64,000 nt of DNA, taken from NCBI RefSeq assembly GCF_004011695.2, contig NC_082424.1, positions 744,001-808,000 on the forward strand. Reading direction: 5' to 3'. Both the position numbers and the translations under genes were made by a program. This DNA comes from Ascochyta rabiei (lineage: Eukaryota > Ascomycota > Dothideomycetes > Pleosporales > Didymellaceae). Positions 32,534-64,000 of this stretch are shown piece after piece (within the stretch, counting starts at the first letter, position 1; each line of letters opens with the position of its first letter). The notes beneath the pieces are model-generated. The model saw only the letters and a list, made by a program, of their open reading frames with translations. It was not told the DNA's origin and ran no database searches.

Positions 32534-33000
32534 TTAGACTAGACTATCTTTATATTACCTGTGTGAATAGAATAGTATATAGTATACTAAGCTCAGACTC
32601 CTTGAATTAAACATACCTACTTCCTTACTACTACTAACCTAATAGCTAAGATAGTATAAGTATATCTACTACCTCTCTCCTTACTACGCGTGCTTAGTAG
32701 CTATATATATAGTTGAGAGCTTACTAATTACAAAGCATAAACAGACTAGACTAGACTAGACTAGACTAGACCCTCTCTACATTACCTATATAAACAGAAC
32801 AGAACACAGTACACTAAACTCGGATTTCTTAAATTAAACACACCTATTCCCTTACTACTAAGCTAACAGTAAAAAAATACTTGGCATATAAAATACTCTA
32901 CAGTACCTCTCTCTACCACCTCTCTCCTTACCACGCGTGCGTAGTAGCTACACGCATCGTCGAGAGCTTGCTAATCGCGAATCGGCAGCGTGAAGACTAT
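32534..33000. repeat. Diverged tandem duplication with RIP-like substitutions
   Basis: Two copies of a roughly 215-240-bp unit (about 32536-32749 and 32760-32998), separated by a CTAGA microsatellite (32743-32768). Both contain ATTAAACA..CCTA, CCTCTCTCCTTAC and ACGCGTGC..AGTAGCTA landmarks in order, and differ mainly by C/T and G/A changes. It starts right after the DUG2 stop codon. Confidence 0.75.
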
Positions 33001-33782
33001 GCAAACCGAAGAATAAGCAGCTGTTTTTCGACGATGCACTTTTTCTTGTGCTTGGCTTCTTGCGGTACGTCCTAGCAGCTGCAGTGTAGCAAGGGGAGCT
33101 TACTGCGTGGCAGCGTGATTGTGCGATGACGACGAAACAACTGCTTGTTCTTTGCTAGTTTGTTTGCGTGGAGTTGGGTTTGAGTGTGTGTGTGCAGTCA
33201 TCTGCTCTGCGATTTGATAGTGCCGTGCTATGCATTGCATTGCCAGTTCCGCAGCTGTATAACTGGTGTCTAGCTGCTTTGCTGCATGTATGTCTTTCCC
33301 ATCATCTCATCTCATCTCGTCTCGTCTCGTTCATTCATTCATCCACTCCCCGCCTCCCTCCAGCGAGCGATGCCGCTTTCACTCACAGTGCAAACGCACC
33401 CGGGTGTGAAGCGGCCTGGTCGCAGTGAAAGAGCCTCCGCATGGCGGTGTTTGCTCGTGCTCTTTCTTACCTGGGCAGGGAGGTGGAGGAGGGGGAGAGG
33501 GCTCTTTCACTGCGGTGCTTTGCCGTATATGATTTCCCTTTGAGGTGCTGCTTCTTTTCTGTCCCTACACCTGGTGCCTGCGTTCTCAACTTGGCTTTTT
33601 CACTCTTGGACTACTACCGCGCGAGCTATACCATCGACAGCGGTTTGGACCTCGTTGCTACGAGTGTGTATCTCGTCTTGCTTTCGGTGCTAGAGCTACT
33701 TGTAGCCATCGGCGTAAGTTTCTGTGGCGGGTTCAAGGCGCAGCAGTTGACTGACCTGGCTACAGTGCTTCTCCTATATACG
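33001..33782 (+). promoter_or_regulatory. Presumed promoter and 5' UTR of the exonuclease-like gene, with a 5' UTR intron
   Basis: GTAAGT at 33714 and CTACAG ending at 33765, with TTGACTGAC between, look like a 52-bp intron ending 17 bp before the start codon. If unspliced, the main frame is open back to an ATG at 33441, but the extra residues look like chance. Confidence 0.45.
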
Positions 33783-44690: not shown

Positions 44691-45220
44691 CGAGGCACAA
44701 CAAGAGCGATCGGCGGCGGCGGCTTCGCGTGGGTGGAGGGTGTTGATGCCCTTGACGCCCCCTGCCGCTCGCTCTGCCGCCGCGGCTTGCTCGCGCTAAC
44801 GATTCCCGCCGCTGCTGCGCCGCCGTCTCTATCTCGACCTCACCCCGGCCACCCTCATGTCGATAGCTCGTCACGCATATACCTCGAACAGGAGAGGAAC
44901 GTGTGTAGACATCAGAGACAGCCATGTTCAACCAGCAATGATGATTTGTATTCCCTTGCTTCACTTTTCTCGCCCTATTCTGACTCCTGCAGTCGTCTCG
45001 TAAAGAGCTGGCTTGTCACCATCAACGGGTCTGATGATGTGTGTGAGTTTGTAGTTTGAGGTGGAAAGTCTTGAAAAGCCCTGAGCGGGCCGGGGTGCTG
45101 GCTGGACACGAAGCACCAGTGATTGTCGATTTGTGTGTCTTTGTTGACGAGACAGACGGCACATTGTCCAGGCTGGACCTCAGAGGTACCTGGAATGTCG
45201 GGGTGGTAGGGGGGAGAGGG
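44691..45220. other. Upstream region of the Zn2Cys6 gene
   Basis: Expected to hold the promoter. No separate gene recognised. Confidence 0.45.
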
Positions 45221-45621
45221 GGAGGAGAATGAGGTGTGGAAGGGGAGGAGAATGAGGTGTGGGAGGGGAGGAGAATGAGGTGTGGGAGGGGAGGAGAATG
45301 AGGTGTGGGAGGGGAGGAGAATGAGGTGTGGGAGGGGAGGAGAATGAGGTGTGGGAGGGGAGGAGAATGAGGTGTGGGAGGGGAGGAGAATGAGGTGTGG
45401 GAGGGGAGGAGAATGAGGTGTGGGAGGGGAGGAGAATGAGGTGTGGGAGGGGAGGAGAATGAGGTGTGGGAGGGGAGGAGAATGAGGTGTGGGAGGGGAG
45501 GAGAATGAGGTGTGGGAGGGGAGGAGAATGAGGTGTGGGAGGGGAGGAGAATGAGGTGTGGAAGGGGAGGAGAATGAGGTATGGGAGGGGAGGAGAATGA
45601 GGTGTGGGAGGGGAGGAGGAT
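45221..45621. repeat. 23-bp minisatellite (unit starts AGGAGAATGAGGTGTGG)
   Basis: About seventeen near-identical purine-rich copies (G/A on the plus strand), only two or three of which have base changes. It ends 81 bp before the left LTR of the transposon block. Confidence 0.95.
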
Positions 45622-45702
45622 GAAGGTGAGAGAGAGTACGGCCACAGCAGACCCTGTTCATCCCATGGGGCGACTTTCTCCTCGATAACCTTGCAACATT
45701 AT

Positions 45703-45957
45703 TGTCAGGACTTCTGCTAAGGTAAGATGGTAACCTACTAGTATGTGTCACAACCTACTAGCAGATTCCATTAAACCTAGTAGAACCTTCCTTTACTAGC
45801 CTTTACTTTTACTTGCAGAGAGCACAGGCCTTACTACTATAAGTAGGCCTCTCTCTCTACCCTCTTATAGCTCGCTATCTACTATTTTGTTTACTCCTCT
45901 TTTAAATCTATTAGTTTACTAGATTGCTACTTTTATGCTTATAAAGTCTGCCTTATA
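45703..45957 (+). repeat. Left LTR of Gypsy-A
   Basis: 255 bp, directly repeated at 62327-62581. Differences between the two are transitions as far as I can align by eye, and they are distributed unevenly (see findings). Confidence 0.93.
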
Positions 45958-47833
45958 TAATAGCAGACCTAACAGCTAAAAATTTTTAGCTTTCTCTTAG
46001 GCTTCTGCCTTTGTTAAGCTAGTAGTTAGCTACTACTACTTAAGGTTACACTAAAGTTTTAGTCTAGTAAGCTATCTCTTTACTAAGTATTAGCCTAATT
46101 TAGATTTCTTTTCTTAGTCTCTACCCTAACTAGCGCAGGTAGTAAGTGCCTGTTTTTAAGTATAAATCAGCCTTCCCTATACGTCTTCTAAGTACAGATT
46201 ACCTATCTTTAATATTTAGTAGGCTAAATTATTACTTTTTTTTAGGCTCTAGAGTACTAGCCTTTTGTTTTACCCTCTAACTAACTAGCGCCTTTTAAGT
46301 AGTCTAGCGCCTCCCTTTAGCACCTTTTAAGTAGTCTAGTGCCTATTTTTTTTAATCTACTAGCGCCTTCTAAGAGGTCTAGCGCCCCTAAGTATCCCCT
46401 ACCCCTTTATTTTAAGAAATACTTACTTTTTTGTCTTTTACTAATATATAGCTCTTTTACTAGAATTTGTCTTTTACTTATATATAGTACTTTTACTACT
46501 AAATATCTAGGCCCTACTACTACTTAAAGGTACTAGGTGCTCTGCTTTTCCTCTAACTACCTACTACTACTACACTTACCTTTATAGATATAACTCTTTA
46601 ACTTCTACTAATATCTTTACATACTACAGCTATATTACTAACTAATAAGGATAATATTAAGCCTAACTCTATGCTACCCCCCTAGCCTTCTTCTACTTCT
46701 ATAAAGAAGACTTCTTATAATAAGTCTTGCCTATACTACCTAGAAACCCCTATAGATCCTAAGTCCTTTAATTACTAGAGTAGTAGTGCTATTTCTAATT
46801 GTATATAAGACTTTAGCTATAAGACATATAAAAAAGCTACTATTCTAGGAACCTTTGTTATATGCAGCAGCCTATCTGCTTTATCTACTAATTAACTAAA
46901 GTCTTAGACACAGAAAGACAAGTAAGCTACTGTTAAAACAGAGGATACTATTATAGAAATCTACTAGCCTACTCCCTACTCCCCTTAGGGACAGGCTTCC
47001 CTATAAAAACTTACTAGCGCTACTCTAGGGCTATAGGAAGAATCTACTTACACTAGCTAGTAGGACACCTCTACCCTAGCTCTATAGTTTTGCTATAAGG
47101 ACTCTTTATGCGCTATATCCTCTTAGGTTCCTTTAAATAATAGTCTCTCCTAACAGTTTTAGCACCTTTCTACTACTATAGTTAAACACTTTCTAGTTAA
47201 ATACTTTAGCCTAGGTAACTAACCTTTAGAGTTCCTTATTACGCTACTTACAGATTTTAACTTCTAGTCCCTTAATCCTCTTATTTAGAATCTAGGGCTG
47301 CCTCTACTGTCTAACAACTATCTAGATAGGTATTTTATACACCTTACCTACAGATAATACTCTATACTCTCTGCCTTCCTTCTAGGACTTCTTAGTAAGG
47401 TTAATAGCAGTCTACATGCGCTATCCTAGCAACTAAATAATAAGTAACTTAAGCTAGATTAGGCTAAGCACTTTTACTCCTAACTAATTAACTGTAATAA
47501 TTAGACAGCCTCTTAACTAAACAACTTATAAGCTAAGTTTACTTAGCATTAGTAGTAATCTACTTAACTTACTTAGTATTACTAATAGCTTAAGCTAAAA
47601 GCTAATTAAGGCTTAGCATAGGAATATCTAGGAGGCTAGGCTAATAACACTACTAACTAACCCCCCTCCTGCTTTAGACACCTCCTTTACTTAGCTTAGT
47701 AGTCTTCTAATATTCCTAAGCCTAAAATACTAGGCTTAGCAGGAACCTATACTAGCATACTATTATAGTTACAGCTTTATAATAACGCACCTACTATAAT
47801 AGACTAATTCTGTACCCCTCTAATATAGGTTAA

Positions 47834-48035
47834 TGTTAGGCGCTAGGCCTAGGGGTACCTCTGCTAGTCTTGGCGAGCTACTATAGGGCTAGCCAGCCCA
47901 GACTATATAAAGGTGTTAGAGGTTATTACTAATACTCTAGTAATTAGTCTTATTACTACACACGACGTACCTTAATACACCTACTATCCTCTTTAACCCT
48001 ATCCTCTCTTGTAATTGCTTTGTATACTCTTTATA
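47834..48035 (+). repeat. Left LTR of Gypsy-B
   Basis: 202 bp, starts TGTTAGGCGC. About a dozen differences from the right copy, nearly all transitions. Confidence 0.93.
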
Positions 48036-51000
48036 TTCTAATTACTCTTATATTATAATTAAAGATAGACCTAAGCTACTATAAGTCTTAAACTAAATAA
48101 TCTAGGCTTACTGTCTTTAGAGAGGGACTAAGACAATCTACCTGTAGGAGAGCTGGTAGAGCGTAAGGTAACACCTCCCTCTGTAGATAAGGAGATACCT
48201 TAACAGACACTAAGTGTCTATAGTGCCTTAAGAGGATCTATAGGCCCTCTAGGTAGTACACCTTACCCTAGAATTCACATCTATAGGGCAGCTTTAGCTA
48301 GAGAAGGCTAGAATAGCCTAGAAGTAGGTAATTAATAACAGGAGTTAGAAAACTTACGTAAATAGTTATAAGAGACAAAAGACTGTAAGGAACTTTCCTC
48401 TTTCTATAAACTTAGACGCAAATACAACAAAGGAGATCTAGTAATAATCCTATCCTTCTAAAAAGTACTAGAAGGGGTAGAGAAACTATAATCTTCCCTA
48501 TTTATAAACCTTCTATAACCTAAACCTCTATAGAAGTATATAAAGCGCAACTGCGCTAAATATAACTATTAGGACAGAGATTATAAGGGATACTTCCTCT
48601 AATCCCTAGTTAATTTCCTTATAGAGGAATAAAAGATCAACTTTAGCATAAGGTACCTCTTAGAGAACCTAAAGACGTTATAGTAGGCCTACTGCATAAC
48701 TAACTACTATAATTAGCTAACCTAGGAACTAATGTAGTAAGAGCTAAAAAGAATTATACTAGATACTCTAGGAACACTAGCTAAACGTAAGCAAGCAGTG
48801 TATAAATCCTTAAAGCAATATAAGCAGTAGAAATCTTAGTCCCCTACAGATCTGTTAGATTTTATGCGTCTACTATAGAAGGAACTAGGCAACTTATATA
48901 CGCTAGAGCTTTAAGTCCTAGAATATGTTACTACACTGCTCCCTAGCATATAAAAGGACTTATTCCTTATCCTCTATAATTAAAGAGACACAATCCTAAG
49001 GGTAGAGGAACAAGCTAACATTATTAACTAGAGACTAGGTTAGCATAGCTAACAGCTACCTAAGAAGACTCTAGCTAAGGGTAAGACAACTAATAAAGGA
49101 CTACAGAAGCGCTAATTTAGTAACTCTAGGTTAGAGGGGAATATAAAAACCCTAAAAAAGTTGTTTAAGTCTAAGAAGTTCTGTAAGGAGCTAGTAAAGG
49201 GTAAAAAGGGCTAAGACAGGTTATATAAGACCTAAAACGCGTGCCTTAAGTACAGAGAAACTAGTTACTACTACCCTAACTGCCTAAAGCTAAAGTTAAA
49301 CTAGAAAGACCCTACTCTAGATAAGTTAGGAAAAGACAAGGGACCTAAGAGCTAATTTCCTCTCTTATAGCCTATATTAAATTGTCTAAGAAGAAGAAGA
49401 AGAATATCTCTCTCTATAAGGCAGTATACCTAGAATATATATACCTGCTTATAGTTAAAGCATCTATAGGCAACACAGAGAATGTAGAAGCCTTAATAGA
49501 TAGAGGGTTACAACTAAACTTAATTTTAGTTCTCCTAGCAAAGGAGTAGGATCTAGAGGTTACACTATTAAATAAAATAGTAGCTAAAGGTGTAGGCGGA
49601 GCAGAATTGCCTATCTACAGAGTAACTACAGCAGAAGTATCTATTATCAACTCCTGTAGAAGACAGGAGGTCTAACAGATACCTTTTGTAGTTACAGACC
49701 TACAAAGATACAAGATATACCTTAGATTACCCTAGATTAACTAGATAAACCCTAAGCTAAGCTATTTAAGCTAGCGTATACTCTTCTAAGGGAAGAAGTA
49801 TAGGGACTCTCCTAAACTAGAGAAAATAGTGTTAGAAGATACTAAAGAGTTTAAACACACTATAAGAAGTCCCTTAGTAGACGTTTATATGTGTATAATA
49901 AACTTAGTAGATATATATAACCTAATATCTGCTAAAAAGGGCCTAATTCTAGAAGTATATTGCAAATATGCGTACTTAGGATTAGAGGATAATGCTTAGG
50001 TCCTACTAGAGCATAGAGAGCATAACCTAGCAATTAATATTGTAGAAGGAGCTACTTCCCTCTACTAACTATTATAGGGACTATCTACAACAGAATTAGA
50101 GATACTTAGAAAGTATCTAGTAGAATATCTATAATGTGGCTAGATACAACACTTAAGGTCGCTAGTAGGGGCGCCTATTCTCTTTTTAAAGAAGAAAGAC
50201 AGTAACCTACAACTATGTGAAGACTATAGAGGTCTAAACAAGATAACAGTTAAAAACTGCTATCTATTACCACTAATTACAGAGTTACTAGAATAACTAG
50301 CGCAAGCTAAGTTCTATACTAAACTAGATATACATAAGGTATATTACTATATCTAAATTAAGGAAAGGGATAAGTAGAAGACTACGTTTTAAACTAGGTA
50401 TAGATATTTTAAGTATATAGTAATGCTGTTTAGACTTATAAATGCTTCTGCCTAATTTTAGGCCTATATAAACAAGGCACTAATAGGATTAGTTAATGTA
50501 ACTTATATTATATATCTAGATAACATATTAGTATACTCTAAGATAGAGGAAGACCACGTTAGACACGTTAAGGAGGTCTTAGAGAGGCTTTGTAAAGCAA
50601 ACCTCTATATACGCTTAGACAAGTGTAAATAGCACTATTAACACACAGAGTACCTTAGGTACATAGTCTTGCCTAAAGGGGTAAGTATTAACCTAGACAG
50701 GGTTAAAACAATCTAAGAATAGCTAATTCTGCGCACAGTTTGTAATATCTAAGTATTTATAGGCTTTATAAACTACTATTAGAGATTTATTATAGGGTTT
50801 TCTAAATTAGCCTTACTATTAACCTAATTAACCTAGAAAGGGCTAAATTCGGCTAAATCTGGTTGAGCAATAAGGAAAGAGGAGAGTTAGCCTCTTAAGC
50901 TAAGTAAAGAATCCCTATAAGCTTTCTAGAATATAAAGGATTTGTTTATTAACGTACCTATCTTAGTTTATTTTGTACCTAGGAGACAGACTAGGATTAA

Positions 51001-53049
51001 AGTAGATGCCTCTAGAGGCGCTATCTCAGGAATTCTTAGTTAACTAGTCCCTAGGGAGGGGAAGCCAGCCTAATAGAGGCCTGTAGACTTCTATTTAAAG
51101 AAGTTAATCTAAGCAGAGTACAACTATAATACTTATAACCAGGAACTTCTTGTAATTGTCTAGAGCCTACAGCATTAGCGAAGATACTTAGACAGTACCT
51201 TCTTTAAGATCTTAACAGATTACTAAAACCTAAAGTAGTTTATAGAGACAAAGGTTCTTAGCTATTAGTAAGTAAGGGTATACTTAGTGTTATCTAAGTT
51301 TAACTTTATAATTACTTATTACCTAGGGTCTATAAACCCTGCAGATAGACCCTTACAGCGTCCTAATTATATAAGAGAGGCGTAAGACCCCTTATAAAAG
51401 TACAATAAGGCTTTTATACAACTGCATTAGGAGATCCTAACTAGAAGGAACCCTAATACTCCCCTAGTAGTAGCTATAACCCTTTGTTTGTCTATAAAAG
51501 GAAGAAAGGATATAAGGGATCTTAAAAGAGAAGAATTAAGAGAGAACAGTTAGATAGAGCTAATAACAGACTTAGATAACACAGACAAACTCTCTAGCAC
51601 TAAAAAAGAGTTAAGCAACGTTAAAATAGGATAAAATAACCTAGAAAAAGACAATATAGCTAAGGAGAGGCGTATCTTACTTATAAGGCTAAAAGATAAA
51701 GTGTAAGTTATTAAAGAATGTTATAATAACCTAATGTTAGAACACTTTAGAGCATAAAGGACCTTAGAGAAGATTTAGCGCAGATACACCTAGAGGGGCA
51801 TTAATAAGGATGTATCTAACTACTGCTATAACTGCTTAGTATGTAGAAGATTAACTACTGCCTAACACAAACTGTACAGGTTATTATAACCTTTACTAGT
51901 ACTAAGCTAACTATAGGAGGATGTAATAATAGAATTTATTACAGAACTACCCTCTAGTAAGGTGGCTAGGCTAGTGTATAACTCTATACTAGTAGTAGTG
52001 TACAAATTAACTAAAATATTACACTACATACTAGCTAGGGCTAATTAGGATAGAAAAGATCTAGCGCACACCTAGATTAGAGAAATTATCTGCTTACACA
52101 GCGCGCCAGCACAAATTATCTTAGATTAGGGGCTGCTAATAAACTTAAAGACGTAGGAAACCTTTAACTACTATTTAAACTTAAGACAAGTCTTAACGTT
52201 AGCCTATTATCCCTAGACAGATAGCTAAACAGAAAGGTAAAATTCGACTCTTAAACAGTACTTACGTTGCTATTATACTCTAGAATAAGATAATTAGGCC
52301 CTATAGATTTTAATTGCAGAATTTGCGTATAATAATAGTATTTACGCATCTATAAATATAACACCTTTTTAAGCCTGTTACAGTATAGATATAAGGAGTA
52401 TAGATTAGCCTACTTTAGTATTAAAAGGTAGAGAATCTCCCCTTGTAAAGGAATTGGCTGCTAGAGTTATTGCCTTATAGGCTACTTACAAAGCAAATAT
52501 AGAAAAGTTAAACAAGTATTAAAAGAAACACTTAGATAAGAAACGACTACTAGCACCCTTTAAAGTAGGCAACAAAGTACTAGTTTCTAGTAAGAATATT
52601 AGGACAGTACGCCTAAAAAAGAAGCTAGACTAGAAATACCTAGGACCTAGGACTATTATAGCCTAGATTAGTCCTAGTGTATACAGAGTAGACCTGCTAG
52701 GAACAAAAGGGATCTATCTAGTATTCTATGCGTTACTACTAGACCTATACACACTAAGAAGTTAACTCCTAATTATATAGGAATAAATATAAGAACCTAT
52801 AGTTAAAGGGGAAGAGAAGGTGTAGGATGTAGAAAAAGTCCTTAATAGAAGGCAACTAGACAACAGACAGTAGGAATACCTTATTAAGTAGGACAGATTT
52901 CCTAACTTAGAAAATTCCTAGGAAATTAGCATATATCTTTCTAAAGAAGTGCTAAAATAATACTAGAAAACTATAAAGTAACTGCTTAGACTGCGTAATA
53001 AGACGTTAAGGTTAAAGTCTAAAAAAGGGGGGACTAAAAAGGCTAAATA

Positions 53050-53970
53050 CCTTACTTAATTATAATTCTTCCCTACAGGGGTTTTTTAATTAATAAGTGT
53101 TTAATAGTTTACGCTAAGGGAAAACATAACCCTACCTTACCCTAAGAAATACAGACTAGCTAAAGTAGATATCTTTTAGCCTATTATAGCTATTTCTAAT
53201 ATAAGGAGATAAAGAAAGTTACACGCTATATTATACAGTTATAATTACAAGTAAATATAAGAGAAATAGTATAGAAGAACACCTTCCTAGTATTATTTAG
53301 ACTATCTAAGAGTGTAATACACCTAATTGCTATATTAGCCTAAAACTGTCTACTAACTACAAACTTAGGTATTATTAATCTAAACCTTCTATTATAGGGA
53401 ACATCTATTAACTATAACCTCTACTATAGGTATAAGTAGCAGCCTTATAACTACTACAAGGCTTCTTAGCAGTGGCAGCAGCAGCAGCAGCGTCGGCGGC
53501 GGCCTATTCAGCAGCCTCCTGCTCCTCTTGTTCCTCCTAGAGTTAACTAAGGGTCTTTCTAGTGCCAGCAATCTAGTACTTTAACTAAAAGAAGTTAGAT
53601 ATTGTTAAAATAGGTTAAAACGTGCTATGATACCTTCTTGCAGGGGGTAATAGGCGCATCTAGATTAGACTCGCTACTGCTCTCCTCTAACAGCTTCTTT
53701 CGCTTTATCTTAGCCTTAACAGCGCTAGCCTTAGATTAGTTGCGCTTCTTAACGTAGATGCTAGATAAGGTTAACTTACGTGTGTAAGTGTTGCTATTAT
53801 AGAGTATAAGTAGCTCTTCCTACAGAAAATAGTTCCTATAAAGGTTAGATTATGCTATAATAAGCTAAAACGTGTTAGAATATACTCTTAAATTATACCT
53901 AGCAACAAGCTAGCCTAGTTAACAATAGACTTACCTATTATAGTCTTTTTGTTAATAGACATAGGCGTAG
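53050..53970. other. Unassigned segment inside Gypsy-B
   Basis: Lies between the chromodomain end and the Tc1/mariner element, with no recognisable coding remnant. It holds a GC-rich CAG/CGG patch at 53474-53520 that stands out from its AT-rich surroundings. Confidence 0.5.
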
Positions 53971-53972
53971 TA

Positions 53973-55321
53973 CAGTCGCGCGTTAAAAGTTAGTTCTGCG
54001 CTAGCGTCCCTCTAACGCGTTAACCCAGCCACCTATACTTTTTAACCACCTACAACTTTACTACTACTACTCTGTTTTCCTTACTTTCTTAACTATTAGA
54101 TGTAGAAACGCTGTTACTTAAATTCTATAGAGCGGGATTAGGTAATTAGGTGGCTACACGCAGGTGCAGGTACCTATAAAGTTACTAGTTACTTTAGCTA
54201 TTATAAGCGTACTATCTAAAATCTTTATAAACGTTTTAACACTACAGGAACTATATACAATAGACCTTGCTTAGGTAGACCTAAGATACTATCTAATACG
54301 CAGAAGAAGCTTCTACACTGCACAATATAAAGAAATCCCTAGATTACCTACTCTAAGCTTACTAAAGTTACCTAGATTACTCTACCTAACAACACTACTA
54401 CCTATAAGCCTAGCAAGTTAACTATCTATTACGCACTTAAGTAATACTATGTAACCTGTTAGAGGAGTAAAAAGAGGCCTAAACTTACTTGTAGGCATGC
54501 TCTCTATCGTCTCTAGTTTGCTTAAGAGTATTAGACGTTCAATTAGCGTTAGCACATAGTTAAGTTCAGTAATAAGTGCTCTGTTTAGAAGGGCTCTAGC
54601 CATAAACAGCAGTAGGTGTTTTGCTATCCTAATAAGAGATAGAAGCTAAGGATAATTACTAGGATCTCTACTAGTTGTCTACCTGCTTAGATAGTATAGG
54701 GAGCTATATGGCTAGATGCACAGGGTAGACTACAGTAGAGTCTACTTATTATTATAGAGAGGGACCCTAATGCTCTACATAGTAGCTATACCAGTAAAAG
54801 TTACATTAAAATACTTAAGTAAGGTCTCTTACCTTACTATTGTAAGTCTTAGCTTTTTATATAGGATAATGTACGTATATACACCTCCTACGCTATATAG
54901 ACGTTTATAGTAGATTATAACATTACAACTCTTCTATAGCTAGCTTACTTACCTAATCTTAACCTAATTAAGCACCTCTAGTAGTGCCTTAAATAGATAA
55001 TGTATAAGCTCTACCTACAGTTTAACAACTATAGTAAGGTAGAAGAGCATTAGGATAAGTTTTATAAGGCATTAAAGGAGTGCTAGCGTTATATCCTAAA
55101 CTTACTTATTAAGAAACTTATTAGTAGTATGCTAGCACGCCTAAGTGCCTGTAGGAAGGTAAAAGGCTAGTAAATAAAATACTAGTATAGAACAGTACAA
55201 CCTTAAAATTTAGAGCGTTTTAACTATATGTAGCTATCTTAATTGCCTTACAAAGTAGGGTGGTGGGCGTGGTAATAATGCGGGGATTTGCTTAGTGGAA
55301 CTAACTTTTAACGTAGTACTG
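53973..55321 (+). mobile_element. Tc1/mariner DNA transposon nested in Gypsy-B, RIP-degraded
   Basis: The 1349-bp element has terminal inverted repeats (CAGT, then CGTTAAAAGTTAGTTC, at the left; the complement GAACTAACTTTTAACG, then ACTG, at the right) and TA target duplications at 53971-53972 and 55322-55323. The plus strand holds a Tc1/mariner transposase remnant: the QDNA-type catalytic block now reads stop-DNVRIYTSYA near 54862, then NLNLIKHL near 54955 where the family has the DLNPIE block, then the C-terminal LARLSACRKVKG near 55135. Stops replace Trp/Gln codons throughout, so it is inactive. Confidence 0.85.
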
Positions 55322-55323
55322 TA

Positions 55324-56274
55324 GTAGCAGGTGTTATAGGGGTAGTCTTAACTCTAGCAGTATTAACAATAGCAGCACAAGCAGCAGTAACTAGGCAGCG
55401 ACTAGAGTGAAGGCGCGCTATGTTGCTAGAAAGCCTTAAATAGCTGTTAGCGTACTTATTAGGGCCCTAAACGTGTTAAAAGATACTAAAACAAGCTAAA
55501 AGGAGACAAAACACGTACTAATAGGCAATTCTTATTACTATTATAACACTCTCTGTAGTAGTAGGCCTAGGTGTCCCTATAACGTAGGCTACCCTATAAA
55601 GCTAGGTTAGCAGAGAAACTACAGTCCCTATAGATATTACTATTAGCAATGTAGTAGAGATATAGCATACAGCACCGCTTAGCAGTCCTACTATTCTTAG
55701 TAATATTAATCTTGCAGTAAGCAGGCATTAATATAACAGCTATAGTAAATAGTAGTTAGTAACAGTTAGTAACAGTTAGTAGTAGGTGGTAGCAGTTAGG
55801 AACAGTCTAAAAAGGTTACTAGGGCGTGTTGTGCGGTGCTATCTGCTAAAACATATTAGAACGTGCTAGAAAGACCTAAAAAATCCCTTAGCTATCCTTA
55901 CAAAAGTGCTAGACAGAATAGGTTAGTACTTACTAAAATAAAGTAGGATATAGTAGTAACTAATAAAACTAGGGGTATAGATAGCTTATATGCTGCTAGC
56001 TACCTAGTTAGAGCTTTAGCCTGTGTAGGCAGCTGCCTAGACCCTAGAGGTAAAGTAAGAGGTAAGAGAGGATTTCTGTTTAACCTTTACTAGGTAAAGG
56101 CAGAATTAGGATTAAGCCCTATCTAGCCTTACAAGGCGTCTAAAACGCCTAAACCTAGTTAGAATTGGCTATAACAGGACAGACAGAGTAAACACATCTA
56201 AATCTAGGCTAAAATAATACAGTATTGCTAATTATACTATTGTTTAAGCCAAATAATCTAGAGAAGGGAGGTAT
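55324..56274. other. Unassigned segment between Tc1/mariner and the right LTR of Gypsy-B
   Basis: AT-rich with no recognisable coding remnant. It ends with the polypurine tract next to the LTR. Together with 53050-53970 it makes Gypsy-B about 1-2 kb longer than a usual Gypsy element. Confidence 0.5.
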
Positions 56275-56476
56275 TGTTAGGCGCTGGGCCTAGAGGTACC
56301 TCTGCTAGTCTTAGCGAGCTACTATAGGGCTAGCCAGCCCAGACTATATAAAGGTGTTAGAGGTTATTGCTAATACTCTAGCAATTAGTCTTGTTACTAC
56401 ACACTACGTACCTTAATACACCTGCTATCCTCTTTAACCCTATCCTCTCTTATGATCGCTTTGTACACTCTTTACA
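56275..56476 (+). repeat. Right LTR of Gypsy-B
   Basis: 202 bp, same length as the left copy, preceded by a polypurine tract and followed by the GTTAA target duplication. Confidence 0.93.
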
Positions 56477-59400
56477 GTTAAGGCGCCTTCTACATACACA
56501 CTACTAGAGAGCACTACCCTAGTTACTCTAACTTCTACTCTAGCTAGCGCTTATTAATTCCTCTAATCCTTAGACTAGTATAATAACTAACTAGACAAGG
56601 CTATAAAGAAACTGTTCGATTTTATAAGCCCTAAAGATAACTTTAATAATTAGTTGTTTAACTGCTTACACTTTATACGTGCTAATAGTTAGAAATATTA
56701 ACATCCTATAGACTAGGCTAATTTCTTCTTAATCTACACTAAAGAACCTGCCTACACTCTTCTACAGGATCCCTCTAGTTTTACCTACTACTACTCTAAC
56801 CCTATAGATTGCATCTATTATCTATAGGAAGTTTATAGAGATAAGGATATCTGTAGTTTAGCTAAATACGCCTTTAACCTGTTTACATTCCTATAATACC
56901 CTAGCCTAGAAATTACTAATATTGCTATAGCGTTTTTAGTCTTCTACACTAAGATAGAATATTTTACTTAGCAACTTAACTAGATACTAGAAACATATTA
57001 CTATTAGCTGCAGACTAGACTTCCTAATTTTATATAATAATAGATAGCTAATATAGCCTATAATAAATTACTGTCTAGGCTACATAACTACTATAACTAG
57101 CTTAATACCTTCTTCTGCAACTACGCTTATATTCCTTCTAAGGTTAATAATAAGGATATCCTAGGAGATAGGCAGAATTGTTTTAGTCCTTGCAACTGTT
57201 AGGCTACTTGCAAAAACACTACTACTATCTCCCTAGGGTCGCCTACTGTTCTTTAACCTACACTAAGCTAAAAGAACAAGGATACCTACTAGTGTTAACC
57301 TAAAGAGACTAGTTTTATAACTAATATATTTATATATTTTAACTATAGAACTAAGGGTTATAAAGTAAATTAATGCCCTACTCCTCCTAAGCCTAAGACC
57401 TACGCTGCACTAGCAGCTGCACCTAAGGACTTTACTATAAACTAACATATCTCTATAGACTAATTTCTACTATTAGATAGTAAAGACAACAAATTTAACT
57501 TCTTAGACAAATACGTCTCTAATTTAGAAAACTAGGTACCTTAGATAATAGTTACTACCTAAGGACTGTTTCCTAATAAGTGTGCTCTTTTAACCCTTTT
57601 ATACCCTACTTAGACACTACTAAGGCTAGCTTAATTATTTGTTAGGTTAATACTACCTAGACAACTACTAAGAAACCTATTTAGACAGGCAGCTAATTAG
57701 CTTTCTAGGCTTCCTTAGGCTGTAATAAAAACGCCCCTTACAGTGTCTGCACACTAGCAGACAATAGCACTAACGCCAGCTTTATCTCTAACACCTTCTT
57801 AAAGAAAACAGGCGCCCTTTAGCTTATTTCTCTAATAATACCTATTATCTGTTAGGGATACAACAGCAAACCTATAAAAACTATTACACATTAAGTAGGG
57901 TTTTACCTTAAAATTAACTTACACCTTAAGTGTACTAGCGCCTATATTATAAATAATTATAATTCTTTTTACCTAATCCTTAGATTTAGGTAGAAGGCTA
58001 TTTATAACCCTACTATTTCCTAGCAAAACTACTCTATTACCTTTATAGATAAGTATTGTTTACAGCACTATAACTTAACTACTTAAACCCCTACCCTACT
58101 TTGCAAAGGTTCCCTGCTAGATGCTAAGCCCCTACTACTATTAAAACCTAGTTCTAGCAACTACTACAAAGGGCAATCTACTTAACCTAAATCTATACTT
58201 TCTAGATTACTTTATACTTATATAGTATAAAAAACATATAATATCTATATTATATTAGCTTCTGCAGTAAGGCTATATAAGAAACGTACTAATTACTTCC
58301 TTATCTTACTATAAAGACTTTAAGCTATAACTACTAAATACGCTTTAGCAGATGCTAATTTTAATAAATTCTTCTAACTAAGCTAGGACCTGCCCCTTTC
58401 TAACTTACTTACCCCTAAAGAACTAAAGGAATACACTAACTTTATTCTAACATTAAATAGGGAAGCTGCTAAAACTCTCCCTAACTATAGTAACTTTAAC
58501 TATAAAATAAAGCTTAAACTAGGTACAAACCCTCCTAATTATTGCCTTTAACCTTTCTCTAGATAGTAAATAGAAGCTATTAAATACTATATTAAGGAAA
58601 ATAAGGTATAAGGTTTTATTAAACGCTGCAACTCCCCTGCTTAAAATAACCTGCTAATTATTACTAAACCTAGAGGAGGCCTGCAAGTCTGTGTGGATTA
58701 CTAGGAGCTTAACAACGCTACTATGAAGGACTAATATCCTATTCTATTTTTCTGCAAAACTATAGCATAACTTAACTAGGCAACTATATTTTTAAAATTT
58801 AATATTATCTATACCTTTTATAGAATTTAGATAAAGCCTAGCTTAGAATAGCTTATAGCATTCTCTATATAGAAAGGTATATACTAGTACAGAGTTATAC
58901 CCTTTAGACTATATAACACCCTAGCAACTTTTTAGTAGGTAATTAATAACTTATTATTTAAATATCTTAATTAATTCTGCATAGTATATTCAGATAACGT
59001 CTTAGTCTTTTCTAACTCCCTAGCTAAACACAAGGAACATGTTAAGAAAGCTCTTAGCAGACTTAAAGATTAAGGATTTTACATAGATCTAAAGAAATCT
59101 AAATTCTGTAAGGAATATGTTAAGTTTCTAAGTATAATTATTACTAATAACAGCGTACAAATAGACCCTAATAAAATTAAAGCTATCTAAGATTAGGAGA
59201 TGCCTAAAACAGTACCTAACATTCTCTCCTTTCTAGGTTTTACTAGATTCTATTAACATTTTATTAAAGGGTACTTATTAATTACTCTCCTCTTAACACA
59301 AGCTGTTAAATCTACTGTTGTTTCTAGACCTTCTAAGAAAGATCCCTTAGTAATCTAATATTCTGTCTAGTACTAAGACTTTAAGCCTACCTAAGCCTAT

Positions 59401-62326
59401 AAAGACGCCTTTTATGCCTTAAAAAGCGCCTTCTAACTAGATATTATACTCTAACACTTTAATCCTATGCAGCTAGTTATTATCTGTACTAATTCCTCTA
59501 GCTAGGCTATAGGAGGAATTATAAAGTAACAGAATTAAAAAGGTAACCTGTAACCTATTACGTTCTTCTTAAAAAAATACTTATCTATAGAATGTAATTA
59601 TAACATCTATAATATAGAACTTATAGTTATTATTTAAGCCTTTAAAGAATAGAAACTAGAACTTATAGGCTCCTCTTATATAATATAGGTAATAATAGAT
59701 TATAAGAACCTAGAAACCTTTATAAAGACTAAGAAGCTTAACTAACACTAAGCTTAATAGTTACTATTTTTCTTTTAGTTTAATTTTAAAATAATATACG
59801 CACCTAGACCTATAAATAGTAAAGTAGATATATTAAGCTAACGTCCTTAGGACATCTCTAGGGATAAATAAGATATATAGTTATTAGATATACACTAAAT
59901 TATCCTAGGACTACGTAACCTAGACCTAGGAGTTATGCCTATAATACAAGCTACTCTACAAGCTCTCTCCCTTACTACTAGCAGATAACCTAAATTTATC
60001 TTACTAGAAGTTTAGGTAATAACAACGTTCTGCGCTACTTAGACACCCTTAGCAGAGCCTAATAACTTAGAAGATAACTTTAACCTAATAGACAACGTTT
60101 ATAGTATATTACTACTAGATTTACTACTATATCTAGAAGATCTCTAATCTACTAAAGATATACTTACTAACGTATATACAGCTAATACAGCTACATAGAA
60201 AATCTTTTCTACCCTAGATAAAAATAACTACAAACTAAGCTCCTAGTTCTGCAAAAACAGCTACTACATCTTCCTAGCTAACTGTTACACTATTAGTAAA
60301 GGCTCCTCTAGATACCTATTCCTAGATAAGACTTAGCTCTATATACCCCCTAACGTACAATTATAACACTAGATATTTAACTTATACTATAACTACAAGA
60401 TTACAGGCTATAAAGGTCCTAAAGCTACTTTGTATTAAATAATTAGGCGCTACTATTAGCCTAGTATGCCTTAGTCTATTAAGAAATATTACTAAGCTTA
60501 CGTAGTATATAAATATATAAGGCCTTTCTAGGAAGCCTATAACAGTTTCCTTAAACCCCTACTAATCTCTAATACTAGGTAGTTAGATATCTCTGTAGAC
60601 TATATTTAAGATTTACTAGCTTTATCTCTTAACAGCTAATTATACACAAACCTGCTTGTTATAGTAGATTATCTTACTAAGTAGTAATACTTCTTCCTGT
60701 TAGTTAGCTACTCTTTAAAGGAATTTGCTTACTACTTTATAGAAATTTTTTGCCTCTATAGACTCCTACGTACTATTATATCTAATTAAGGTACTTCCTT
60801 TATAAACAAATTCTAAAAATAGGTTTATAAACGCCTTTAAATCTTAGCTAAGCTATTAACATCTTTTTACTTACAAACTAATAGTTAAACTAAATAAGCT
60901 AATTAAAGCCTTAAAATCTATTTATAAAAGTACGTTACCTACATATAAAATAATTAGGCTTTATAGCTGTATCTTGCTAAGTTTTAAGCTAATAACACTA
61001 TTAATATATCTACTAGACTTATACCTTTCTTTATAGATCTTAGGTATTATCCTTATAGTAGTATACACCCTAGTAAAGACTATACATAAATAGAACTATT
61101 ATTAAAAGAAGCTAAAGGCTAAATCTTACGCACTAATAAGTTACTCTGCACCTACGCTAACCTTCTAGAATATCTAAAGATTTAGCTTACCTAGGCATAA
61201 TAAGAATAATAAGCCTAAGCTAATGCTTATTGCTAACAGACTCTAAAATATGTAGTTAGTAACCTAGTTTAGGTTTCTACATGCAACTAGAATACTACCT
61301 AGCCTTTAAAAAAACTAGACTATAAGTATGCTAGGCTATACTTAGTTACTTATATTATATATAATAGAGCTATATATAAACTAGACCTACCTATAGATAT
61401 AATATTAAAAGGCGTATTTCTAGTATTTTACCCTAACTTGCTCTAGGAAACAAGCTAAGACAATCTACTAGATTAAGCACTACCTAAACTAACACCCACA
61501 GAGGTTACTAATAGCTAGAGTTTAGTCTCTTAAGAATAGTATATTAACTTATTTCTTAATTATAGAAAGTAATGTAGTATATAGGAATACCTTATTAAAT
61601 AGTCTAATAACCCTAAACCTACCTAAAAACCTACTAAGCAACATCTTAACTACTATAACGCTTTCTTATTTTACTATAACAATCCTAACAAACTAGTTCT
61701 ACTAGCACTCTAAATACTAATAGACTAGGAGCCTTGCCTAGAAGACACCTTTAACAATAGCTAGTTCAGCAATCTTAATAAATCTAGTTAAAATAAGATA
61801 GGCTAATAAAAGTAGATATATTACTTAATAGAATTTTAGGCTACTTTTAATAGGCTCCTTTATAGGTTAAAAACACGCCTAAAGACACGCTAAACATAAT
61901 CTAGACCTACTTAAGCTTACCCTTAGGCTGCTACAGTTTAGCAATTAACTATTAATAAAGGTTAACCTTAAAGTTAAGGATAAATCTAGCTCTAACAAAT
62001 TAATAAATCTCTTTACACTACTCCCTTATATAAGCTCTAAATAGAAAGAAGTATAGTTTTTGTGTTATAGGGTTTATACAGTAGAAAAAATCTTAGAGGT
62101 TATTTTTTTATATAAGGATTTAGGGAGACCTGTATAACACTACTAAAGGCATATACCTTAATTACACTCTAACTACTAATAGGTTCTTATATAGGATTTC
62201 TATATCCCCTTTTCCTTTATTTTTCTTTTACTCTTACTTAAAAAAAAAAATTAGTATTAGACTCTTATAGTTACTTATACACAGACTTTAGCTTAAGAGA
62301 CTTTGCTATTTATAAGAAGGGGCACG

Positions 62327-62581
62327 TGTTAGGACTTCTGCTAAGGTAAGATAGTAACCTACTAGTATATGTTACAACCTACTAGCAGATTCTATTAAAC
62401 CTAGTAGAACCTTCCTTTACTAGCCTTTACTTTTACTTGCAGAGAGCACAGGCCTTACTACTATAAGTAGGCCTCTCTCTCTGCCCTCTTATAGCTTGCT
62501 GTCTGCTATTTTGTTCACTCCTCTTTTGAATCTATTAGTTCACCAGATCGCTACTTTTATGCTTGTGAAGTCTGCCTTACA
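62327..62581 (+). repeat. Right LTR of Gypsy-A
   Basis: 255 bp, begins TGTTAGGACTTCTGC and ends CCTTACA, followed by the ATTAT target duplication. Confidence 0.93.
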
Positions 62582-62586
62582 ATTAT

Positions 62587-62924: not shown

Positions 62925-63120
62925 TCTTCTTCTTCTTCTTCTTCTTCTTCTTCTTCTTCTTCTTCTTCTTCTTCTTCTTCTTCTTCTTCTTCTTCTTCTT
63001 CTTCTTCTTTTTCTTCTTCTTCTTCTTCTTCTTCTTCTTCTTCTTCTTCTTCTTCTTCTTCTTCTTCTTCTTCTTCTTCTTCTTCTTCTTCTTCTTCTTC
63101 TTCTTCTTCTTCTTCTTCTT
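62925..63120. repeat. (TTC)n microsatellite, about 65 copies
   Basis: A near-perfect CTT/TTC run of 196 bp with one interruption (TTTTTC near 63008), followed by three copies of CACTTA. Confidence 0.97.
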
Positions 63121-64000
63121 CACACTTACACTTACACTTACTTAAGTTATACTGTCTCTTAGGATAAGCACTCTTGTCTAAGCCCTATTGTACAGCATAA
63201 TGATCAAACATTTACCTAGTCTGCTTAAGGGCTTATCTGCAAAACGCTAGCAACTAACCCCTAAGCTACACACAGATGATGGCATACAGAGAACTATTAA
63301 GGCATCTCTTTAAACTCTTATTAATGTGTGTCACTCTCCCTTTCAGTAAGTGTCACAAGCTGACACGTAAACAGGACAAAGCGAGACAAATTAAGCTTAA
63401 CTTTGTGCAATACAAGCGTTGCACACCTCCAGCTAGGTGTCGCTACCTCGTCTTCTATACCACTTAATAACAAACGCACTTAGCTGGGTGCAACCTCATC
63501 AACACCTATCCTGATCGAAGACGATGATATCGACGACGAATTTGGAGACATTTCCGCCGCTGAGTTGGACCCCTTAGGTGACAACTAGGACGACGTCCGA
63601 GTGGACACTAACGAAGATGGTGATGACGATGATTGCTACAACGCCCCGGTAACAATGTCGAGGAGACGTGGCTCTGCTGAGTCTGGTAGCACGGTCGATG
63701 CCCTTGAAGCTGCATGCGTTTTGATGGGAGAGGACAGAGGTTTCCACGTGGAACCAGGCAGCTGTAGACTACGATTAGTCAACTATGAAGCTTTTTGCCT
63801 GCTGTCAATAATTTTACTATTTTTGCTGAAGGCTTCCTAAGGTGTCGACAAACTCTCAAATCACATTGCATTTAGAGCTGCTGGAAATGCATGTCAACCA
63901 ATTACTTTGTCCTGAATGCGACGATATGGCGATTGGGCTCATGCTGTCGCATAACTAAAAGATACTCCTCCACCGATCGTTCAAAGCTGCACTGCATTGA
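63121..64000. other. Window end, no confident gene
   Basis: Apart from the acidic frame at 63508-63840, nothing was recognised. Confidence 0.45.
63508..63840 (+). pseudogene. Interrupted acidic reading frame
   Basis: A plus-strand frame reads LIEDDDIDDEFGDISAAELD, hits a TAG at 63586-63588 and continues VDTNEDGDDDDCYNAPVTMS to a stop at 63838. The continuity of protein-like, Asp-rich sequence across the stop suggests a broken gene or gene fragment. Family unknown. Confidence 0.3.

What the first reader, a model, noticed from the sequence alone, without database searches (positions are those of the whole stretch)
45703..62581. Three-level nested transposon with all target duplications preserved
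Outer Gypsy-A (255-bp LTRs, ATTAT), inner Gypsy-B (202-bp LTRs, GTTAA) and Tc1/mariner (TA, 1349 bp) are nested like dolls. LTR pairs have equal lengths and all three target duplications are exact, so the order of insertion is fixed: Gypsy-A first, then Gypsy-B, then the DNA transposon.
Basis: seen in the sequence. Interest (0 to 1): 0.75.

Follow-up and report, generated by a model that had tools for sequence, protein, structure and literature searches.

The report
Nested fungal transposons scarred by RIP
Three mobile elements sit one inside the other in a fungal genome, all crippled by the fungus's own repeat-mutating defence, and the mutation pattern suggests that this defence fades near the ends of each element.

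Summary
Gypsy-A (45703-62581, 255-bp LTRs, ATTAT) holds Gypsy-B (47834-56476, 202-bp LTRs, GTTAA), which holds a 1349-bp Tc1-like transposon (53973-55321, TA). All three duplications are exact. Both inner target sites are uninterrupted elsewhere in the genome (19 of 19 other A copies examined; 20 of 20 B copies sampled), so the order A, B, Tc1 holds. The nest is ordinary for an AT-rich Didymellaceae genome (probably Ascochyta rabiei, inferred).

[quoted passage not shown] All 17 differences between the A LTRs are C-to-T type, 15 at CpA, so LTR divergence does not date the insertion. They are also mirror-polar: each LTR is spared at its outer end and mutated at its inner end. In 22 LTR pairs of both families, within 80 bp of an LTR end, the inner copy is the mutated one at 211 sites against 41 (21 pairs, 1 tie; 0 of 20,000 label shuffles as large). 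Most Tc1 copies show the same. RIP seems to fade within about 80-100 bp of the end of homology. Nine paper searches on this turned up no description of it; the library is open-access only.

The parts
45698..45702 (.). target duplication of Gypsy-A, left copy (ATTAT)
45703..45957 (+). Gypsy-A 5' LTR, 255 bp; outer (left) end spared by RIP, inner end mutated
45958..47828 (+). Gypsy-A internal part left of the B insertion, RIP-mutated (TA/AT 2.7)
   Evidence: indices computed on 45958-47830
47829..47833 (.). target duplication of Gypsy-B, left copy (GTTAA)
   Evidence: GTTAA in 18 of 19 uninterrupted A copies, ATTAA in 1
47834..48035 (+). Gypsy-B 5' LTR, 202 bp
48036..53970 (+). Gypsy-B internal part left of the Tc1 insertion; coding remnants broken by stops
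50462..50629 (+). piece of Gypsy-B reverse transcriptase (PF00078)
   Evidence: E 1.8e-9
50930..51040 (+). piece of Gypsy-B RNase H (PF17919)
   Evidence: E 3.5e-5, 24.2 bits against a cut-off of 29.8
53971..53972 (.). TA target duplication of the Tc1-like element, left copy
53973..55321 (+). Tc1-like DNA transposon, 1349 bp, CAGT...ACTG, TIRs of about 24 bp
55322..55323 (.). TA target duplication of the Tc1-like element, right copy
55324..56274 (+). Gypsy-B internal part right of the Tc1 insertion; purine-rich tract before the 3' LTR
56275..56476 (+). Gypsy-B 3' LTR, 202 bp
56477..56481 (.). target duplication of Gypsy-B, right copy (GTTAA)
56482..62326 (+). Gypsy-A internal part right of the B insertion, with coding remnants; purine-rich tract before the 3' LTR
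58975..59070 (+). piece of Gypsy-A reverse transcriptase
   Evidence: PF00078 E 0.002, below the curated cut-off
62327..62581 (+). Gypsy-A 3' LTR, 255 bp; inner (left) end mutated, outer (right) end spared by RIP
62582..62586 (.). target duplication of Gypsy-A, right copy (ATTAT)

Best explanation
A Ty3/Gypsy LTR retrotransposon (A) inserted into unique DNA beside a minisatellite; a second Gypsy element (B) then inserted into A, and a Tc1-like DNA transposon into B (shown by nesting, duplications and uninterrupted sites elsewhere). All three are multi-copy families, and RIP mutated them by C-to-T changes, mostly at CpA (shown). RIP is triggered by pairing of homologous copies; its efficiency falls within about 80-100 bp of the point where homology ends (pattern shown, mechanism inferred). 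The two LTRs of an element are identical at insertion (general knowledge). The outer end of each LTR lies at the end of homology with other full copies and is spared; the inner end lies within homology and is mutated. This gives the mirror image. Pairing of the two LTRs of one element with each other would give no such polarity, so the mutating partner must usually be another full-length copy (inference).
For: Nest, duplications, uninterrupted sites. RIP: GC 0.30-0.38 in the internal parts against 0.56 in the 45-kb left flank; TA/AT 2.0-2.75 against 0.67; (CA+TG)/(AC+GT) 0.33-0.77 against 1.22 (the usual thresholds >0.89 and <1.03 are quoted in PMC4188875, passage). A LTRs: 17 differences, 15 at CpA, 2 at CpG, none of another kind. 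Polarity by thirds: A 93 against 17, 9 of 9 pairs; B 124 against 26, 12 of 13 pairs. Within 80 bp: 211 against 41 over 22 pairs, 21 inner > outer, 1 tie, 0 of 20,000 label shuffles as large; CpA only 146 against 29, other transitions 65 against 12. Tc1: outer 100 bp less mutated than the stretch 200-300 bp inside in 17 of 20 left and 19 of 20 right ends. Window itself: A 14 against 0, B 7 against 2; Tc1 unmutated share 0.32 against 0.17 left, 0.42 against 0.18 right. Sparing holds at ends with AT-rich flanks (139 against 33) and with other flanks (72 against 8). The LTRs (255 and 202 bp) are shorter than the 400 bp that PMC4188875 gives as the size recognised in Neurospora (passage), which fits pairing of whole elements.
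Against: B pair C2:1180 shows no polarity (4 against 4; 3 against 4 by thirds). The window's B alone is only 7 against 2. The middle third of B leans to the 5' LTR (26 against 12), so not all asymmetry is an edge effect. Two Tc1 copies (L155, L157) are mutated to their ends, and L149 goes the other way on its left end. The Tc1 measure counts raw dinucleotides and could partly reflect ancestral composition. Sparing is stronger beside GC-richer flanks, so neighbouring chromatin may contribute. At the inner junctions no clear sparing of the host element is seen (sums mine): A side of the B junction, 0-99 bp 14 of 22 sites mutated against 13.6 expected from other copies, 100-299 bp 30 of 43 against 23.1; B side of the Tc1 junction 7 of 12 against 7.1 left and 8 of 17 against 9.5 right. 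So whether A and B were mutated before or after the next insertion is undecided. The 80-bp cut was chosen after seeing the profile; the thirds, used first, agree.
Confidence: 0.8

Rival explanations
1. The outer LTR ends are spared because flanking non-repeat chromatin shields them, not because homology ends there.
For: Sparing is stronger where the 60-bp flank has GC of 0.40 or more (72 against 8) than below (139 against 33). The unmutated share of Tc1 ends correlates with flank GC (Spearman 0.42, p 0.06 left; 0.49, p 0.03 right).
Against: Sparing remains strong at ends with AT-rich flanks (139 against 33) and is seen, weakly, in the window's B, whose flanks are Gypsy-A (7 against 2).
Confidence: 0.2
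2. The block is a composite that was copied as a unit, so the order of insertion did not play out at this locus.
For: None found.
Against: None of 19 other A copies examined has B at this place and none of 20 other B copies sampled has Tc1 at this place. A has its own exact duplication at its outer flanks. Ten partial A matches and 19 further B matches were not examined.
Confidence: 0.02
3. LTR differences reflect ordinary age (neutral divergence) rather than RIP.
For: LTR identity of 93-94% would fit an old insertion.
Against: A: 17 of 17 differences are C/T-type, 15 at CpA. B: of 13 differences 10 at CpA, 1 at CpG, 1 transition elsewhere, 1 transversion.
Confidence: 0.02
4. An assembly artefact joined unrelated repeats.
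For: Reads could not be examined here.
Against: Exact duplications at three levels, uninterrupted counterparts elsewhere, and continuity in a 1.27-Mb contig.
Confidence: 0.02

Closest known systems
LTR retrotransposons in AT-rich isochores of Dothideomycetes (Ascochyta rabiei ArME14, PMC7341154, passages)
   Same: Gene-sparse AT-rich blocks (average about 6.2 kb) and many LTR elements; genome 40.9 Mb; contigs of 3,373,759 and 1,223,093 bp there against 3,374,210 and 1,223,078 bp here.
   Different: The passages shown describe neither this nest nor LTR polarity.
Tc1/mariner DNA transposons
   Same: TA duplication, inverted CAGT...ACTG ends, DDE_3 matches in two sister copies.
   Different: The two TIRs differ at bases 5-8; the same left end recurs exactly in 8 of 12 and the right end in 12 of 12 copies shown.
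Repeat-induced point mutation (RIP) as in Neurospora crassa
   Same: C-to-T, mostly at CpA, in repeated DNA.
   Different: Here a graded loss over the last 80-100 bp of the element is measured in natural LTR pairs. PMC4858203 (section 11 read) says mutations are confined to shared homology and notes one construct whose first ~130 bp escape. [quoted passage not shown]
crapaud LTR retrotransposon of Podospora anserina (PMC10787394, passages)
   Same: RIP-affected LTR family; warns against dating by LTR divergence.
   Different: Its LTR differences between subfamilies lie in U3; the passages shown do not mention outer/inner polarity within pairs.

Membership tests
Ty3/Gypsy LTR retrotransposon (Gypsy-B) | Paired LTRs with 5-bp target duplication | tested here: met
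Ty3/Gypsy LTR retrotransposon (Gypsy-B) | Reverse transcriptase then RNase H in pol | tested here: met
   RT at 50462-50629, RNase H at 50930-51040 (E 3.5e-5, below its curated cut-off)
Ty3/Gypsy LTR retrotransposon (Gypsy-B) | Integrase downstream of RT/RNase H (the Gypsy order) | tested here: inconclusive
   Pieces 51917-52045 and 52523-52630 look like it by eye, but no Pfam match
Ty3/Gypsy LTR retrotransposon (Gypsy-A) | Paired LTRs with 5-bp target duplication | tested here: met
Ty3/Gypsy LTR retrotransposon (Gypsy-A) | Gypsy-type reverse transcriptase | tested here: inconclusive
   58975-59070 PF00078 E 0.002, 18.3 bits against a cut-off of 29.6; neighbouring pieces resemble Gypsy pol by eye
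Tc1/mariner | TA target duplication and terminal inverted repeats | tested here: met
   of 12 copies shown, 9 have TA beside CAGT on the left and after ACTG on the right, 1 more begins TAGT, 2 have a divergent left end
Tc1/mariner | DDE_3-type transposase | tested here: met
   PF13358 at C5:127832-127993 (over the cut-off) and C8:334890-335117 (27.1 bits, under it), inside family copies; no match in 4 short pieces of the window's own copy
RIP | C-to-T at CpA in repeats, TA enriched, CA/TG depleted | tested here: met
RIP | RID-type methyltransferase in the host | tested here: inconclusive
   DNA_methylase PF00145 matches at three loci; not assigned to RID or DIM-2
RIP | Occurs in the sexual cycle | not testable with these tools
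   needs crosses

The most novel reading that the evidence does not exclude
LTR pairs of RIP-affected fungi carry a built-in, self-controlled record of how RIP senses the end of homology: mutation fades over the last ~80-100 bp, so each LTR is spared on its outer side. This lets the reach of homology recognition, and which copies paired, be read from any assembled genome without crosses.
Probability: 0.6. Interest if true: 0.6.

Novelty: new member of a known kind. Interest (0 to 1): 0.38.

Why it matters
The nest is ordinary. The RIP pattern in it is useful: LTR divergence cannot date insertions here, RIP appears to spare the ends of repeats, and LTR pairs offer a way to measure the length scale of recombination-independent homology recognition from natural sequence. 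It also tells annotators to expect element ends to survive RIP better than interiors.

Tried and rejected
Dating RIP against nesting by the target bases: GTTAA is the state in 18 of 19 uninterrupted A copies and TA in 18 of 20 B copies, TG in 2, so neither target was clearly made by RIP. An idea that RIP-made TA sites attract the Tc1 element has no support here. Sparing of the host element at the inner junctions: inconclusive. Pfam on 20 stop-free pieces of the nest found few domains; stop-free pieces from five other A copies (fetched, listed) were not searched. A first look at A empty sites was spoiled by unturned minus-strand loci and redone. LTR pairs dropped because an LTR was not at the predicted place or aligned poorly: 2 of 10 for A, 8 of 20 for B; one further A pair was set aside for length and was included. 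Two of the 12 first Tc1 loci (L021, L028) were left out for length; three copies used there (L149, L155, L157) have ends that are off by 2-10 bases. An earlier count said 22 full-length Tc1 copies; the right count is 16 of 30.

Literature: ten paper searches were answered, nine on RIP edges or LTR polarity (one search returned none) and one on the host. Of the papers listed I looked at passages of eight for this question (searches cover PMC10787394, PMC12543289, PMC4858203, PMC11969663, PMC7296669, PMC2621366, PMC9970103, PMC4188875, PMC7882544: nine papers in all, of which one section of PMC4858203 was read whole). The rest were seen as listings only. None of what I saw describes outer/inner LTR polarity; this is no proof of novelty.
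Full report
Observation. The window lies in a 40.9-Mb fungal assembly of 23 contigs (window = C20:744001-808000). A has 255-bp LTRs (238/255 identical), B 202-bp LTRs (189/202), and the DNA transposon is 1349 bp with CAGT...ACTG ends.

Order. In 19 of 19 other A copies examined, out of 29 other matches (10 partial or diverged ones not examined), the B target is uninterrupted, reading GTTAA in 18 and ATTAA in 1. In 20 of 20 other B copies sampled, out of 39 other matches listed (134 candidates, 40 scored), the Tc1 target is uninterrupted, TA in 18 and TG in 2. Both inner insertions look private to this locus, and the order A, B, Tc1 follows.

Identity. B carries stop-free pieces matching reverse transcriptase (PF00078, 1.8e-9) and RNase H (PF17919, 3.5e-5). 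A carries one weak RT piece (0.002, below the cut-off) and neighbouring pieces that look like Gypsy pol by eye. Two other copies of the DNA transposon contain DDE_3 matches, one over and one under the cut-off. Purine-rich tracts stand before both 3' LTRs; calling them polypurine tracts is from general knowledge, and no primer-binding site was tested.

Host. A gene in the flank is closest among named records to Ascochyta clinopodiicola (83%); Neodidymelliopsis, Stagonosporopsis, Macroventuria, Boeremia and Didymella follow. Contig sizes are close to those of A. rabiei ArME14 (3,373,759 and 1,223,093 bp there; 3,374,210 and 1,223,078 bp here). The species is inferred, not named by a tool. PF00145 methyltransferase domains lie at three loci, unassigned.

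RIP. The segments between 45703 and 62581 have GC of 0.30-0.42 and TA/AT of 2.0-2.75; the 45-kb left flank has 0.56 and 0.67 (whose segment borders for B and Tc1 are off by up to 5 bp). All 17 differences between the A LTRs are C/T-type, 15 at CpA and 2 at CpG. Of 13 between the B LTRs, 10 are at CpA, 1 at CpG, 1 a transition in another context and 1 a transversion. LTR divergence therefore measures RIP rather than time.

Polarity. In the window's A, the 5' LTR is unmutated at the differing positions 4-67 where the 3' LTR is mutated, and the reverse holds at positions 157-254 with one exception at 171. Other pairs were fetched to test this. A: window plus 8 of 10 fetched, outer thirds 93 against 17, 9 of 9 pairs. 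B: window plus 12 of 20 fetched, 124 against 26, 12 of 13 pairs. Middle thirds (5' mutated against 3' mutated): A 18 against 24, B 26 against 12. In 20-bp bins the excess is clear to 80 bp and weak at 81-100 bp (A 21 against 15, B 20 against 14). Within 80 bp: 211 against 41, 21 of 22 pairs, 1 tie; none of 20,000 label shuffles is as large (largest difference 80 against 170 observed). The direction of each change is assumed to be C to T or G to A.

Third family. In 20 Tc1 copies the outer 100 bp keep more CA/TG than the stretch 200-300 bp inside: left 0.49 against 0.33 (17 of 20), right 0.51 against 0.26 (19 of 20). Two copies are mutated throughout. This measure is cruder than LTR pairs because ancestral composition is not controlled.

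Meaning. LTRs are identical at insertion (general knowledge), so the polarity arose afterwards. It fits RIP driven by pairing of full-length copies, fading near the end of homology. Flank chromatin may add to it: sparing is 72 against 8 beside flanks with GC of 0.40 or more and 139 against 33 beside AT-richer ones. Each level of the nest shows some sparing at its own ends (A 14 against 0, B 7 against 2; Tc1), which suggests that each was mutated as its own homology unit, though B alone is weak. The host element shows no clear sparing at the inner junctions, so the order of RIP and of the inner insertions is undecided.

Literature. Searches and the passages seen gave no account of outer/inner LTR polarity. 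PMC2621366 has rDNA repeats mutated mostly centrally and evenly except near the ends, and another family with slightly more at the ends. PMC4858203 notes one construct whose first ~130 bp escape. Verdict: an ordinary, well-preserved nest that exposes a measurable edge effect of RIP.

Noticed in passing
32600-33100: A small RIP-like patch (32600-32799: GC 0.34, TA 40 against CA+TG 9) with what looks by eye like a roughly 200-bp local duplication whose first unit is more mutated than the second; the search found no other match in the genome.
   Followed up: partly
45219-45628: A 23-bp minisatellite (17.8 copies, 98% matches) ends 69 bp left of the A duplication; the search found no other match in the genome, though it skips simple repeats.
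   Followed up: partly
62925-63121: A long TCT/CTT microsatellite (65.7 copies) begins 338 bp right of the nest.
   Followed up: no
53973-55321: The two TIRs of the Tc1 element differ at bases 5-8 (CGCG against ACTA), two of the four by transversion, so not by RIP alone; the left end recurs exactly in 8 of 12 and the right end in 12 of 12 copies shown.
   Followed up: no
L058 (C4:53386-53767): A 71%-identical relative of the A internal region, possibly a sister family.
   Followed up: no
G000 C1:757443, C1:1693664, C10:970672: Three loci with DNA methylase domains, candidates for the host's RIP and DNA methylation enzymes.
   Followed up: no
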